Shown here in pieces: positions 5,642 through 10,853 of a stretch of 58,076 bases of DNA. Within the stretch, counting starts at the first letter, position 1, and each line of letters starts with the position of its first letter. The notes below the pieces were generated by a model. It was not told the DNA's origin. It did no database searches and worked only from the letters and a program-made list of their open reading frames with translations. Made by a program: the position numbers and the translations under genes. Source of the DNA: an uncultured Eubacteriales bacterium. Its GTDB lineage: Bacteria; Bacillota; Clostridia; Lachnospirales; Lachnospiraceae. The DNA is taken from the NCBI GenBank assembly GCA_900314565.1, contig OMVU01000035.1, forward strand, positions 1 through 58,076, in the 5' to 3' direction.

Positions 5642-6160
5642 ATGTCAAATCCAATCGTAACCTTTAACATGGAAGACGGAAAAGTCATCAAGGCCGAACT
5701 CTATCCGGAGATCGCGCCGAACACAGTCAATAATTTCATCAGCCTCATCAGAAAGGGCTTCTACAACGGACTTACATTCCACCGCGTCATCAAAGGCTTT
5801 ATGATCCAGGGCGGCTGCCCGCTGGGCACCGGCACAGGTGGACCGGGCTATCATATCCGCGGTGAATTCGCGATGAACGGATTCGAAAACAATCTGAAAC
5901 ATGACCCGGGCGTTCTCTCCATGGCGCGCGCCATGAACCCGAACTCAGCGGGAAGCCAGTTCTTTATCATGCACAAGGCTGCCCCGCATCTCGACGGCGG
6001 ATATGCCGCTTTCGGTAAAGTGATCGAGGGGATGGATGCAGTGAATGCGATCGCAGATGTCCGCACAAGCTTCACGGATAAGCCTCTCAAGCCGGTCGTC
6101 ATGAAGACGGTGACGGTGGATACGCTCGGAAAAGAGTATCCGGAGCCGGAGACAGTCTGA
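5642..6160 (+). CDS. Cyclophilin-type peptidyl-prolyl cis-trans isomerase
   Basis: A 172-residue single-domain cyclophilin. [13 protein letters not shown] and [16 protein letters not shown] contain the catalytic Arg, Phe and Gln residues of the family. There is no signal peptide, so it should act in the cytosol on proline bonds during folding. The ATG at 5642 has GAGGTG 8 bases away. The ATG two codons earlier is too close to that site. It stands alone with its own terminator. Confidence 0.93.
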
Positions 6161-6178
6161 TCCTGACAGAAACGAATA

Positions 6179-6222
6179 CCTCCATGCAGCTGACATGCTC
6201 CTGCATGGAGGTTCTTTTTTTT
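6179..6222 (+). terminator. Terminator after the cyclophilin gene
   Basis: An 11-bp stem, CCTCCATGCAG with CTGCATGGAGG, is followed by TTCTTTTTTTT. Confidence 0.9.
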
Positions 6223-6263
6223 GCACTCCCGCTCGACCACGCTCATAAAGACCTGCACAAAGA

Positions 6264-6372
6264 CAGTACCGTCCTGCGAGGAACAGGGATCCTCGCTCAG
6301 AAGCTCTCCTTCTCGCAGACGGTGCCGTCACGTAAGGAACAGGCTCTTCGCTCAGAAGCTCTCCCTCTCGAC
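6264..6372. repeat. 55-bp tandem duplication of the yigZ 3' end
   Basis: Two imperfect units, 6264-6318 and 6319-6372. The right unit contains the last codons and stop of the YigZ gene, and the left is a diverged copy downstream of it. Shared blocks include GGAACAGG and CGCTCAGAAGCTCTCC. Confidence 0.7.
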
Positions 6373-7017
6373 CACACCGTCGACGATGCGGTATTCCAGT
6401 TCCCTGGCCAGAAGAAGCTCCGCCTTCCCGTCTGTCGCCTGGACCGTCGCCTTCTTTATTCTCTCCGCCTCTCCCGCCGGCATTAGAACGCTCATGACGA
6501 CGTCCTGCCCGTATTCCATCTCCGGTGTCGGCAGATTTTCCTTCGCATAGACATACTGCAGCTTTCCTGCCTGCTGATAAGTCACTTTGTAGCGCAGAAG
6601 GACACCACGTGTGACAGTCACGATTTCCGCATTTTCAAGCGCAGCCTTGACAGCCTGCGTATAGGAGCGGACCAGCCCGCCGGTCCCGAGCAGCGTGCCC
6701 CCGAAATACCGTGTCACGACTGCGGCGGCATAATGCAGTCCCGCTCCCGTCAGGACTTCCAGCATCGGTTTTCCGGCCGTGCCTCCGGGTTCGCCGTCGT
6801 CGTTGGATCTCAGTATCTCAGAGGGTGTGCCGGGCTCTCCCGTTATGCAGGCAAAGCAGTGATGCCTGGCATCATAATACCGCTTTCTGGCTGCCTGAAG
6901 GAACGCTTCCGCTTCAGGAAGCGTCTTCGCAAAATGCACTTCTCCGATAAATTTTGATTTTTTCTCAATGTATTCACCCGTGCCGGATACACGGATCGTA
7001 GTATAGGAATCGTTCAT
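6352..7017 (-). CDS. yigZ: YigZ/IMPACT family protein
   Basis: 221 residues. The N-terminal UPF0029/IMPACT domain contains KKSKFIGE, the RYYDARHHCFA segment and the highly conserved DDGEPGGTAGKP loop near residue 73. A C-terminal ferredoxin-like domain follows. The family is widespread, with RNA- or ribosome-related roles proposed from the eukaryotic IMPACT homologue. The ATG at 7017 is the only reasonable start, since the family begins about here, yet no ribosome site precedes it. The promoter places transcription start at the ATG itself. Confidence 0.88.
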   Translation of the reverse strand: MNDSYTTIRVSGTGEYIEKKSKFIGEVHFAKTLPEAEAFLQAARKRYYDARHHCFACITGEPGTPSEILRSNDDGEPGGTAGKPMLEVLTGAGLHYAAAVVTRYFGGTLLGTGGLVRSYTQAVKAALENAEIVTVTRGVLLRYKVTYQQAGKLQYVYAKENLPTPEMEYGQDVVMSVLMPAGEAERIKKATVQATDGKAELLLARELEYRIVDGVVERESF

Positions 7018-7023
7018 GCCTAT

Positions 7024-7075
7024 ATTTTACGCAAAACCGCAATGAGTTGCAATATCCTGAGAATTTGCTTATAAT
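7024..7075. promoter_or_regulatory. Divergent promoter pair sharing one -35 box
   Basis: TTGCAA at 7047-7052 is its own reverse complement. Rightward it is followed by 17 bases and TATAAT (7070-7075), with ATG at 7083. Leftward it is followed by 17 bases and TAAAAT (7029-7024), with ATG at 7017. Only 7 and 6 bases separate each -10 from its start codon, so both transcripts should begin at or within a few bases of the ATG. Confidence 0.75.
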
Positions 7076-7082
7076 ATGTAGC

Positions 7083-9812
7083 ATGAATTACACTACAGAA
7101 AATATTGAAAAAATTGAAGAACGGCTGGAATCCTCATCACTGGGATTCCAGAGGCGCATCGGAGTCATGCTGCTCCGGCTGCTCCTCATTGTATTTATCT
7201 CTGTCCTTGTCGTAGGTATTTTCGGCACTCTGGGCATCGCAAGAGGAATTATCGCGAACGCACCGGATATCTCGGACATCAATATCGCCCCGAGCGGCTA
7301 TGCGACTTTCATTTACGCGACAGATAACAACGGAAATGAAATTCAGCTGCAGAAGCTCACGACCTCGAATTCGAACCGGATCGCGGTGTCGATCGATGAT
7401 GTTCCCATTCACCTTCAGAATGCGGTCATTGCCGTCGAGGACGAGCGCTTTTATCAGCATAGCGGGATCGATGCCAAAGGTATTATCCGTGCTGCGGTAG
7501 TCGGAGTCAAAAATCGCTTCAAATTTACGGAGGGAGCGAGCACAATAACCCAGCAGCTGCTGAAGAACAACGTTTTCACGACATGGACGCAGGAGGTCAC
7601 CCTGCTCGACCGGATCAAACGAAAATTCCAGGAACAGTTCCTGGCTGTACAGCTTGAGGAGAAGCTCATCGAAGATCTGGGGAGCAAAGAAGCTGCCAAG
7701 AAGCGTATTCTTGAGAATTATCTCAACACGATCAATCTCGGCGGCGGTACCTATGGTGTCCAGGCGGCATCGAAGAAGTACTTTAACAAAGATGTCAAGG
7801 ACCTGGATCTTGCAGAGGCAACGGTCATCGCGGGAATCACCCAGAATCCGAGCAGATATAACCCGATCCGCCACTGGGATTATAACCTTGAACGCAGGGA
7901 GAAAGTCCTCGGTGATATGCTGCGGCAGGGCTATATCACGCAGGAGGAGAAGGACTGGGCGATCGCGGAATCAGACCGCGTGCATCAGGAAATTCTCGAC
8001 GCGCAGACGGTGATCGCGCAGACGGAAAATACGGTCTACTCTTACTTCATTGATGAGCTTACCGAGCAGGTCGTCGACGATCTTCAGAAGCAGAAAGGCT
8101 ACTCTGAGACGCAGGCTTATCAGGCTCTGTATTCCGGAGGCCTCAAGATCAATACCACTCTCGATATCGATATGCAGGCTATCTGCGATCAGGAGTACGC
8201 GAACCCGGAGAATTTCCCGGAAGGCACGATCTATGAGATGGACTGGGCCCTCTCCGTACAGGATGCAGCAGGCGAGGTACACAATTACAGCAGAGAAATG
8301 CTCCGGAACTTCTATCAGGAAAATGGCCATCCGGATTTTTCGCTGTATTTCAACTCACCGGAGGAAGGTCAGGTCTTTATCGACGATTACCGCAGCAAGG
8401 TCGCAAACCCTGAAGAAGGCAACACGATCATTGCGGAGACGTCTTCCTTTACGCCGCAGCCTCAGTCTTCCATGGTCATCATCGAGCAGAATACAGGCAA
8501 AGTAAAGGCAATCGTCGGCGGCCGGGGTCAGAAGACCGCTTCGCTCACACTGAACCGTGCAACGAACACGACAAGGCAGCCGGGTTCCACATTCAAGGTC
8601 CTGGCAGCTTATTCGAATGCGATCGATACCGGAAAGCTGACGCTCGGGACTGTCATTGTCGACGAGCCGTATAAGTACTCGGACGGCACGGATGTCCATA
8701 ACTGGCTCACGGACACGTATCAGGGCAATCTGACGGTACGTGACGGTATCGCGAACTCCGTCAACGTTCTGGCGGTAAAGGCCATCACGGAGTACAGTAC
8801 TCCCGAGGAAGCGTACAATCAGCTTCTCAAGTTCGGGTTCACGACGCTGTCAAGCCGGTACGACGTTTATCAGCCGCTGGCTCTCGGCGGTATCTACAAC
8901 GGTGTTTCCAACCTGGAGCTGACTGCCGCCTACGCCGCGCTTGCAAATGACGGGACCTACATTAAGCCCATTTTCTACACAAGTATCACGGACAATGACG
9001 GCAATGTGATCATCGACAACACTCCGGAGGAGACGCATGCCGTCAGCAAGTACACTGCTGCTCTTCTGACCAGCGCGATGCAGGATGTCGTCATGGTCGG
9101 TACCGGCCAGAATCTGCAGCTCGAGTGCGGAATGCCGGTCGCCGGTAAGACCGGAACGACTTCAGATTATAATGACGTCTGGTTCGTCGGTTATACACCC
9201 TACTATACATGCGGTGTCTGGGCCGGCTACGACAGAGATGAACATCTTCCGGACGAAGGAATCGGTCACACGTATCATCAGATCCTCTGGAAGAAGGTCA
9301 TGAACAGGATCTCCCAGACACAGGTCGTCAGGCAGTTCAAAATGCCTGAGGAGATGCTGAAAAAAGAGATCTGTCTCGATACAGGACTGCTCTCCACCTA
9401 CGGATGCAATTCAAGACTTGAATATTTCGCTCCGAACACTGCTCCGACGAAGACGTGTGATTCTTCTCACACATATACACCGCAGCAGAATACCTGGAAC
9501 GATAATACCTGGAATCAGTGGCAGGAAACGCCCTCAGAGACTGTGGCACCCACACCGGCACCTGCAACGCCCGCTCCTTCGGATCCATGGACACCGGGAC
9601 CGGGTGGTGAGACCGGCGGAGATACCGGTGGTGACACCGGCGGAGATACCGGCGGTGAGACCGGTGGCGGAACCGGCGGTGAGACCGGCGGCGGAACCGG
9701 TGGTGACACCGGCGGTGAGACCGGTGGTGGAACCGGCGGAGATACCGGTGGTGACACGGGTGGAGAAACCGGCGGAGATACCGGTGGCGGCGAAGCTGTC
9801 ACTGCCGAATAA
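7083..9812 (+). CDS. Class A penicillin-binding protein (bifunctional transglycosylase/transpeptidase)
   Basis: 909 residues. A short cytoplasmic N-terminus and one membrane helix (about residues 29-58) precede a GT51 glycosyltransferase with EDERFYQH (catalytic Glu119) and ASTITQQLLKN. The transpeptidase domain has STFK (Ser502, Lys505), SVN (Ser559) and KTG (Lys689). It polymerises lipid II and cross-links peptidoglycan outside the membrane. The tail from about residue 840 is Gly-Thr-rich low complexity. No ribosome site precedes the ATG at 7083, and the promoter suggests a leaderless mRNA. An earlier in-frame start is excluded because it would lie in the -35 box. Confidence 0.93.
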   Translation: MNYTTENIEKIEERLESSSLGFQRRIGVMLLRLLLIVFISVLVVGIFGTLGIARGIIANAPDISDINIAPSGYATFIYATDNNGNEIQLQKLTTSNSNRIAVSIDDVPIHLQNAVIAVEDERFYQHSGIDAKGIIRAAVVGVKNRFKFTEGASTITQQLLKNNVFTTWTQEVTLLDRIKRKFQEQFLAVQLEEKLIEDLGSKEAAKKRILENYLNTINLGGGTYGVQAASKKYFNKDVKDLDLAEATVIAGITQNPSRYNPIRHWDYNLERREKVLGDMLRQGYITQEEKDWAIAESDRVHQEILDAQTVIAQTENTVYSYFIDELTEQVVDDLQKQKGYSETQAYQALYSGGLKINTTLDIDMQAICDQEYANPENFPEGTIYEMDWALSVQDAAGEVHNYSREMLRNFYQENGHPDFSLYFNSPEEGQVFIDDYRSKVANPEEGNTIIAETSSFTPQPQSSMVIIEQNTGKVKAIVGGRGQKTASLTLNRATNTTRQPGSTFKVLAAYSNAIDTGKLTLGTVIVDEPYKYSDGTDVHNWLTDTYQGNLTVRDGIANSVNVLAVKAITEYSTPEEAYNQLLKFGFTTLSSRYDVYQPLALGGIYNGVSNLELTAAYAALANDGTYIKPIFYTSITDNDGNVIIDNTPEETHAVSKYTAALLTSAMQDVVMVGTGQNLQLECGMPVAGKTGTTSDYNDVWFVGYTPYYTCGVWAGYDRDEHLPDEGIGHTYHQILWKKVMNRISQTQVVRQFKMPEEMLKKEICLDTGLLSTYGCNSRLEYFAPNTAPTKTCDSSHTYTPQQNTWNDNTWNQWQETPSETVAPTPAPATPAPSDPWTPGPGGETGGDTGGDTGGDTGGETGGGTGGETGGGTGGDTGGETGGGTGGDTGGDTGGETGGDTGGGEAVTAE
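9603..9800 (+). repeat. Glycine-rich tandem repeat in the penicillin-binding protein tail
   Basis: About 16 degenerate 12-base units, GGNGANACCGGN-like, encode repeated GG(E/D/G)TGG. This is a slippage-prone coding microsatellite, probably a flexible wall-spanning tail. Confidence 0.9.
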
Positions 9813-9848
9813 AAGAAGCCCGGCGCTTTTGCGCCGGGTCTTCTTTTT
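9811..9848 (+). terminator. Terminator after the penicillin-binding protein gene
   Basis: AGAAGCCCGGCGC pairs with GCGCCGGGTCTTCT around a TTTT loop and is followed by TTT. The A-rich 5' side lets it work in both directions. Confidence 0.88.
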
Positions 9849-9920
9849 GCATTTTTCAGTTTTTTCACAGATACTTTCTTACCCGAAGAACGGGCGGCAA
9901 AGCAGACAGATCAGACGTGA

Positions 9921-10853
9921 TTAAAGAACAAGTCTCGCTGCCCCATAGATTCCCGCGTCATTTCCAAGCTTGGCAAGAACGATCATCGTGTGACGGCATG
10001 CGGAGAATGCACGCGCGCGGAAATAATTTCCCACGATATCTGTCAGGCACTCGCCGGCCTTGGAGACACCGCCACCGATAACGATGACTTCCGGATCCGT
10101 GACTGCTGCGATCGTTGCAATACCTGTTCCGAGATACTTCGCAAAGCGATTGACAATCGTCGAAGCCATTGCGTCGCCATCCTTGTAGGCATCGAAAACA
10201 GCCTTGGAAGTAACTTCCGTGTCGCGCAGTGCTGACGGAAGGACCGGATTCTTCGCAAGTTCTTCCTTAGCCAGACGAACGATACCGGTCGCGGAAGCGA
10301 CCTGCTCCAGGCAGCCGCAGTTTCCGCAGCCGCAGGGATCCGTAATATTGTCTTCTACGTGGATATGACCGATTTCACCGCCGGCACCGTGCGCGCCCTC
10401 GACGATCTTGCCGTCGACGATGATTCCTCCGCCGACTCCGGTTCCAAGCGTGACCATGATGACGGAATCCATACCTTCTCCGCCGCCCTTCCACTGTTCG
10501 CCGAGCGCAGCGACATTGGCGTCATTTCCCGCACGAACCTTCATGTCAAGAAGATTGCCGAGCTCATATTCGACGTTTTTCTCTCCCCAGTGCAGATTTA
10601 CCGCTACCGGGACCACGCCCCGCATGACCGGTCCCGGAATGCCGACGCCCACTCCGATGACATCCTCTTTTGCGATCTTTTTGACCGTCATTTTGGACAT
10701 GACTGTTGCCGCAATGTCGGGGAGGACATTTTCTCCGCCGTTTTCAGTGCGGGTAGGAATCTCCCATTTGTCGATCAGCAATCCGTTCTCCTCAAAGAGT
10801 CCGCACTTCACAGTTGTTCCGCCGACATCGATTCCGAAACAATATTTACCCAT
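9921..10853 (-). CDS. glkA: ROK family glucokinase
   Basis: 310 residues. The ATP loop is GIDVGGTTVKCGLF at the start. The ROK zinc motif, with its conserved cysteines, is CGCGNCGCLEQ near residue 175. The GHIHVED His-containing sugar site is just before it. It phosphorylates glucose to glucose 6-phosphate in the cytosol. It starts 2 bases after the hprK stop with GAGGT as ribosome site, so it is co-translated with the carbon-catabolite kinase HprK. That pairing ties glucose phosphorylation to catabolite control. Confidence 0.93.
   Translation of the reverse strand: MGKYCFGIDVGGTTVKCGLFEENGLLIDKWEIPTRTENGGENVLPDIAATVMSKMTVKKIAKEDVIGVGVGIPGPVMRGVVPVAVNLHWGEKNVEYELGNLLDMKVRAGNDANVAALGEQWKGGGEGMDSVIMVTLGTGVGGGIIVDGKIVEGAHGAGGEIGHIHVEDNITDPCGCGNCGCLEQVASATGIVRLAKEELAKNPVLPSALRDTEVTSKAVFDAYKDGDAMASTIVNRFAKYLGTGIATIAAVTDPEVIVIGGGVSKAGECLTDIVGNYFRARAFSACRHTMIVLAKLGNDAGIYGAARLVL

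What the first reader, a model, noticed from the sequence alone, without database searches (positions are those of the whole stretch)
7018..7082. Two divergent, apparently leaderless promoters sharing one palindromic -35
TTGCAA reads the same on both strands and serves a TATAAT to the right and a TAAAAT to the left, each at 17 bases. The start codons lie 7 and 6 bases past each -10, so both mRNAs would begin at or almost at the ATG. Neither gene has a Shine-Dalgarno site. Leaderless starts are rare in Firmicutes, and the shared -35 would make the cell-wall synthase and yigZ compete for polymerase.
Basis: partly seen in the sequence, partly recalled or inferred. Interest (0 to 1): 0.75.

Follow-up and report, generated by a model that had tools for sequence, protein, structure and literature searches.

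The report
Back-to-back promoters without mRNA leaders
In an uncultured Lachnospiraceae-type bacterium, a cell-wall synthase gene and its neighbour yigZ appear to be read in opposite directions from two promoters that share one recognition box and start right at the first codon, an arrangement that some related species keep although such leaderless starts are rare in this group of bacteria.

Summary
Between the start codons of yigZ (7017, -) and a class A penicillin-binding protein (PBP; 7083, +) lie 65 bp: TAAAAT-17-TTGCAA-17-TATAAT, with 6 and 7 nt from -10 to ATG and no Shine-Dalgarno (SD) site. A promoter scan of this window alone is no better than chance; comparison makes the case. In 24 of 36 species of the genus a TATAAT-type box lies 5-8 nt (19 of 24 exactly 6) before the PBP ATG, none of the 24 with an SD. 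Outside the genus it is 1 of 54; 50 of 54 have an SD, and in 20 of 54 an exact TATAAT lies 22-30 nt upstream. So this lineage probably lost a short SD-bearing leader but kept the promoter. yigZ looks leaderless in 11 of 37 genus members, all 11 leaderless-type for PBP too. The shared TTGCAA with 17/17 spacing and a 65-bp gap recurs in two clades (six species): 17 of 18 hexamer positions are invariant against 14 of 46 elsewhere. Leaderless genes show no genome-wide peak here. Polymerase competition is plausible but untested. No transcript start has been mapped. Verdict: a real, conserved, new variant of known things.

The parts
6352..7017 (-). yigZ / IMPACT-family protein gene (221 aa), ATG start at 7017
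   Evidence: TIGR00257 E 2.8e-45, below its cut-off; UPF0029 and DUF1949 above cut-off; N-terminus aligns with homologues, SD-led in most
7018..7023 (-). 6-nt gap between yigZ -10 and ATG; predicted start of the yigZ mRNA at or within a base of 7017
   Evidence: sequence; TSS is inference from the -10 to start distance
7024..7029 (-). yigZ -10 box TAAAAT (TACAAT in the second clade)
7047..7052 (.). shared palindromic -35 TTGCAA, 17 nt from each -10
   Evidence: invariant in six species, with flanks GAGTTGCAAT
7070..7075 (+). PBP -10 box TATAAT (consensus)
   Evidence: exact TATAAT in 23 of the 24 leaderless-type genus members
7076..7082 (+). 7-nt gap between PBP -10 and ATG, no SD; predicted mRNA start at 7082 or 7083
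   Evidence: TSS is inference
7083..9812 (+). class A PBP (bifunctional peptidoglycan synthase, 909 aa), ATG start at 7083
   Evidence: PF00912 and PF00905; PBP_1a_fam E 9e-152, just below its cut-off; M1 matches starts in other genera, SD-led in 50 of 54
9818..9839 (+). terminator-like hairpin after the PBP gene (also scored on the minus strand)
   Evidence: 4 such sites found against 2.7 +/- 1.8 in shuffles

Best explanation
Two sigma-A type promoters stand back to back in 65 bp and share the palindrome TTGCAA as -35. Each -10 sits 6-7 nt before the start codon, so transcription should begin at the A of the ATG or one base before it and both mRNAs are leaderless; the ribosome must start on a bare 5' AUG without an SD. 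In the PBP gene this state probably arose in this genus of Lachnospiraceae-type bacteria by loss of a short SD-bearing leader (about 16-24 nt in sister genera) between an existing -10 and the ATG, was kept in most species, and was lost again a few times. yigZ became leaderless in part of the genus. In two clades the promoters came to share one -35, which should make polymerase binding mutually exclusive. Shown: sequence, conservation, absence of SD, start codons by homology. Inferred: TSS, initiation on a bare AUG, exclusion of two polymerases, the order of events.
For: PBP: box at 5-8 nt before ATG in 24 of 36 genus species (19 at 6, 4 at 7, 1 at 8; 23 exact TATAAT), SD in 0 of the 24; outside the genus 1 of 54, SD in 50 of 54. 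In 20 of 54 outside genomes an exact TATAAT lies 22-30 nt upstream, all 20 with an SD. Fisher p 6e-12, and 1e-10 after thinning near-copies to 19 of 29; neither is tree-aware. C precedes the ATG in 19 of 24 leaderless-type against 19 of 65 others, as expected if the A is +1. Tree with 29 of the 36 genus species: 4 changes, e.g. one gain and three losses. yigZ: 11 of 37 genus members, all 11 also leaderless-type for PBP and divergent neighbours of it. Shared TTGCAA, 17/17, 65 bp in G000/G005/G034 and G011/G033/G037; hexamers invariant at 17 of 18 positions, elsewhere 14 of 46, p 3e-6. Not a genome-wide habit: 498 genes, no peak.
Against: No transcript data. -1 pyrimidine as such does not discriminate (23 of 24 against 53 of 65, p 0.17). 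12 of 36 genus members do not fit for PBP: five have an SD of 4 bases or more, seven have neither SD nor box. The shared -35 matches TTGACA at only 4 of 6 (one search scores the pairs 10 and 9 of 12). In G019, G027 and G037 a 4-base SD-like match also lies near the yigZ start. The five other both-leaderless species do not share a -35 (gaps 91-139 bp). The best tree does not group the two shared-35 clades, and the AU test leaves it open (p 0.10). Family-wide there is no clear excess of shared TTGCAA pairs over independent halves (37 against about 29).
Confidence: 0.8

Rival explanations
1. The PBP promoter is leaderless but yigZ is not expressed from TAAAAT; the left boxes are AT-rich chance matches in a short spacer, and yigZ uses another weak start.
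For: TAAAAT is not full consensus; only 11 of 37 genus members show a yigZ box; the -35 is weak.
Against: TA[A/C]AAT at 17 nt from TTGCAA is kept in six species from two clades while spacers vary, and boxes at 6-7 nt recur without a shared -35 in G019, G021, G023, G027, G040. No SD lies before yigZ in the window.
Confidence: 0.15
2. Both genes have leaders: the real TSSs lie upstream, and translation is SD-independent on a leadered mRNA (A-rich or unstructured start).
For: SD-less leadered starts exist (recalled); 7 of 36 genus members have neither SD nor box at 5-8 nt.
Against: The scan of 6300-10000 shows no other promoter-like site on the + strand; TATAAT-type boxes at exactly 6 nt in 19 of 24 would be unexplained.
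Confidence: 0.08
3. Compatible with leaderless starts: the shared -35 is a by-product of spacer shrinkage with no regulatory meaning; the two promoters are each weak enough not to disturb each other.
For: At E. coli bidirectional promoters basal activity gives no competition (PMC12825309, passages). Family-wide, TTGCAA with 17/17 boxes occurs 37 times, close to about 29 expected from independent halves.
Against: Kept at 65 bp and 17/17 in two clades with PBP stem branches of about 0.4-0.5 changes per column; PBP has a consensus -10.
Confidence: 0.5

Closest known systems
Leaderless mRNAs (TANNNT shortly before the start codon, e.g. Actinobacteria, Deinococcus)
   Same: -10 directly before ATG, no SD
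   Different: here in a Lachnospiraceae-type lineage where 364 of 498 sampled genes have a start with an SD; Zheng et al. 2011 found Firmicutes leaderless genes concentrated in Lactobacillales and Mycoplasma (PMC3160421, passages)
M. tuberculosis prpD / Rv1129c, divergent pair both leaderless
   Same: divergent neighbours both with mapped leaderless starts (PMC3898074, figure legend passage)
   Different: a gene and its regulator in an actinobacterium; the passages I saw do not speak of a shared -35
Bidirectional promoters of E. coli with a shared -10 (TSSs most often 18 bp apart, 10 and 23 also common)
   Same: one DNA element read on both strands; polymerases exclude each other (PMC12825309, passages)
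   Different: here the -35 is shared and the predicted TSSs are about 65 bp apart
Ordinary divergent promoters of yigZ and PBP in other genera of the family
   Same: same two genes back to back, often with a TATAAT before PBP
   Different: there 71-538 bp apart in the 33 genomes measured, and SD-led in most

Membership tests
leaderless mRNA | TSS within about 5 nt of the start codon | not testable with these tools
   no RNA data for this uncultured genus
leaderless mRNA | -10 box 5-8 nt before the start codon, conserved | tested here: met
   PBP 24 of 36 genus species; yigZ 11 of 37
leaderless mRNA | no SD | tested here: met
   0 of 24 for PBP; window yigZ none; 3 of the 11 yigZ have a 4-base SD-like match
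leaderless mRNA | AUG as start codon | tested here: inconclusive
   all 24 PBP starts are ATG, but the script looked for ATG only and that required ATG for a leaderless label; leadered homologues mostly use ATG too
bidirectional promoter with a shared element | one element read on both strands with functional spacing to both -10s | tested here: met
   TTGCAA, 17/17, in six species; spacing only, function not tested
bidirectional promoter with a shared element | transcription in both directions from it | not testable with these tools
   needs RNA or in vitro transcription
bidirectional promoter with a shared element | shared -10 (published E. coli class) | tested here: not met
   the two -10s are separate, 7024-7029 and 7070-7075

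The most novel reading that the evidence does not exclude
The shared TTGCAA works as a one-polymerase switch that sets PBP against yigZ expression, and the missing leaders free both genes from SD- and leader-based control, so that cell-wall synthase output depends directly on promoter occupancy and on initiation at a bare AUG; selection, not shrinkage, keeps the 65-bp unit.
Probability: 0.12. Interest if true: 0.75.

Novelty: new variant of a known kind. Interest (0 to 1): 0.5.

Why it matters
It gives a one-gene case of a switch from SD-led to leaderless initiation: same gene, same promoter type, sister genera with a leader and without. That makes the question of how leaderless genes arise and persist in SD-using Firmicutes directly testable. 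The 65-bp unit is also close to the smallest spacer two full promoters could share, and TTGCAA is the only palindromic hexamer that keeps the TTG of the -35 on both strands (simple reasoning: a palindrome that begins TTG must end CAA).

Tried and rejected
Third leaderless candidate in the window (ATG 54831, + strand): the AraC-type ligand-binding and cupin matches begin at residues 90-91 and a likelier start lies further in by eye, so I dropped it. The other nine pattern hits are in my judgement mostly weak (-35 matches of 1-4 of 6, or far inside the frame); one, in L168 of G027 (TATAAT at 6 nt, 5 of 6 in the -35), is plausible and was not followed up.

Genome-wide leaderless use in this genus: tested on 498 genes and rejected, no peak at 5-7 nt. 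The 364 of 498 with an SD is a lenient count: any candidate start in the first quarter of the frame.

Is the shared palindromic -35 a common family device? ATTNTA-N17-TTGCAA-N17-TANAAT occurs at 37 sites in 36 of 397 family genomes and in 13 of 42 genus genomes (14 sites, six of them at this locus). Control N21/N21: 5 sites in 5 of 397. Mixed N21/N17: 24 sites in 24 of 397, two orientations. Independent halves predict about 29, so no clear excess for sharing itself is shown. The tool's own backward control (0; 2 sites) is biased because it changes the central hexamer. Of 30 of these 37 sites that were given as loci, 27 have an ORF of 60 aa or more starting within 400 nt on both sides; no random control was run for that.

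Rows dropped before counts: PBP covers 36 of 42 genus genomes (G002, G006, G012, G035, G038, G039 lacked a usable 5' end), 45 of 48 family genomes (not G059, G061, G084) and 9 of 55 order genomes (only 9 fetched). yigZ covers 37 of 42 genus genomes (no match in G029, G032; start not fetched in G002, G025, G039) and 34 outside genomes whose stretch held a divergent yigZ; 2 of these 34 gave a box, G075 plausible and G043 with an SD-led start further in. In one search the start of G086 was set too far in by the script; by eye its GTG start has an SD, so the outside SD count is low by one. The tree holds 29 of the 36 genus species; that holds 27 genus genomes.

Papers: leaderless + Lachnospiraceae + Shine-Dalgarno gave 0 papers. 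The listings showed no paper on this locus; some searches listed only 25 of 125, 15 of 503, 12 of 216 and 10 of 23. The 34% 'some Firmicutes' figure is quoted in PMC12131743 (passage).

Full report
What is there. One search shows the 65 bp between two start codons: yigZ ATG at 7017 (-) and PBP ATG at 7083 (+). Reading left to right: 6 nt, ATTTTA (TAAAAT on the minus strand), 17 nt, TTGCAA, 17 nt, TATAAT, 7 nt. Neither start has an SD of 4 bases or more. The genes are a YigZ/IMPACT protein and a bifunctional class A PBP. A plain promoter scan is no better than shuffles (3 sites against 2.2 +/- 1.4), so the case rests on comparison.

Start codons. In 50 of 54 homologues outside the genus an SD stands before the PBP start, and the first residues (mostly MNY, MNF or MDY) align with M1 of the window protein. 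So the ATG at 7083 is very probably the ancestral start. For yigZ most homologues' SD-led starts lie within a few residues of the window's M1.

Leaderless PBP across the genus. Of 42 genus genomes, 36 had a usable PBP 5' end. In 24 a TATAAT-type box lies 5-8 nt before the ATG: 19 at 6, 4 at 7, 1 at 8; 23 are exact TATAAT, one TAGAAT; none has an SD. Outside: 1 of 54 (G082). There 20 of 54 have an exact TATAAT 22-30 nt upstream, all 20 with an SD before the ATG, and 34 of 54 have an exact TATAAT somewhere within about 70 nt. Near-copies do not drive the contrast (19 of 29 after thinning). C precedes the ATG in 19 of 24 against 19 of 65; pyrimidine in general does not discriminate (p 0.17). The 12 genus exceptions are five with an SD (G004, G010, G013, G024, G031) and seven with neither: three with a -10-like box 62-63 nt upstream (G003, G018, G026), three that by eye follow another gene closely (G007, G025, G030), and G029. 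On a PBP tree of 35 rows, 29 of them from the genus, the label needs 4 changes, for example one gain and three losses, with leadered G031 and G010 branching first (support 90 for the rest). In the joined PBP plus yigZ tree the deepest branches are not resolved.

yigZ. In 11 of 37 genus members an ATG follows a box by 6-7 nt: G000, G005, G034; G011, G033, G037; G021, G023; G019; G027; G040. All 11 are leaderless-type for PBP as well, and in all 11 the genes are divergent neighbours. Outside, 2 of 34, of which one is plausible.

Shared -35. Six species from two clades have TTGCAA exactly 17 nt from both boxes in a 65-bp gap. Across the six, 17 of 18 hexamer positions are invariant and 14 of 46 others (p 3e-6; a count over positions, not tree-aware). 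In the five other both-leaderless species the gap is 91 (G023), 92 (G021), 123 (G019), 133 (G027) and 139 bp (G040), too long for one -35 to serve both at that spacing. Whether the two shared-35 clades are sisters is open: the best tree does not group them, and the AU test does not reject it (p 0.10).

Is it a habit of the genome? No. In 498 genes from samples of ten genus genomes 364 have a start with an SD of 5 or more bases, and boxes at 5-7 nt number 12 with no peak over other distances.

Is the shared palindrome a family device? The pattern occurs in 36 of 397 family genomes (37 sites), against 5 sites for a spacing control and 24 for a half-right control. The halves alone predict about 29, so I do not claim selection for sharing across the family.

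How it most likely works. RNA polymerase with the housekeeping sigma binds TTGCAA in either orientation. It melts TATAAT or TAAAAT and starts at or next to the A of the start codon. The ribosome, probably as a 70S particle (recalled from work on leaderless mRNAs), begins on the bare AUG. Two polymerases should not fit on one -35 at a time; that this limits output is inference. In E. coli, competition at shared-10 promoters appears only with strong transcription (PMC12825309, passages).

Compared with what is known. TSS maps give few leaderless genes in clostridia: 15 in C. difficile (PMC7438776, passage), about 2-3% of transcripts in solventogenic species (PMC9045289, passage), 4% of intergenic sense TSS in C. 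phytofermentans, whose genes generally have another TSS and an RBS (PMC5171806, passages). Zheng et al. report leaderless genes in 56 of 209 Firmicutes genomes, mean 4.2%, concentrated in Lactobacillales and Mycoplasma (PMC3160421, passages). A divergent leaderless pair is shown for M. tuberculosis (PMC3898074, legend). So each ingredient is known. The joint arrangement, and a one-gene switch across a genus with leadered sister genera, I found in none of the listings (several of them capped).

Organism. The window's genome has no name here. Two close relatives match, by contig number and length, named MAG contigs: G005 C17 = CAMOXU010000017.1 (uncultured Clostridia) and G034 C32 = CADABA010000032.1 (uncultured Lachnospiraceae RUG13128). 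'Lachnospiraceae-type' rests on these names.

Noticed in passing
L007, L008, L009 (PBP upstream of G026, G018, G003): One clade has a longer leader: TTGCAA-17-TAAAAT/TAGAAT with the box 62-63 nt upstream, then AAGGAGG some 30-40 nt before the ATG, too far to serve it. A short upstream ORF or a hairpin may bridge the gap.
   Followed up: no
L097 (G030), L099 (G025), L030 (G007): PBP follows another gene closely with no SD and no promoter box (in G030 and G025 the upstream reading frame ends like the window's glucokinase, by eye), as if SD-less translation persisted after the gene moved behind a new neighbour.
   Followed up: no
window 7076-7081: ATGTAG, a start codon directly followed by a stop, lies between -10 and PBP ATG in G000 and G005; with a start at 7082-7083 it would not be transcribed.
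   Followed up: partly
L178, L185, L193, L195: Other divergent ORF pairs in the family with TTGCAA at 17/17 and 32-56 nt from -10 to start on both sides: candidates for shared -35 promoters with ordinary leaders.
   Followed up: partly
L110 (G082): Outside the genus, one PBP homologue has TATAGT 6 nt before ATG and no SD: possible independent leaderless origin.
   Followed up: no
L168 (G027), minus-strand gene 5696-7456: Another gene of the genus with TATAAT 6 nt before its first ATG, a 5-of-6 -35 at 17 nt and no SD: a further leaderless candidate.
   Followed up: no
window about 9600-9810: PBP ends in a long Gly/Asp/Thr-rich repeat tail; aligned lengths of relatives' C-terminal parts differ.
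   Followed up: no
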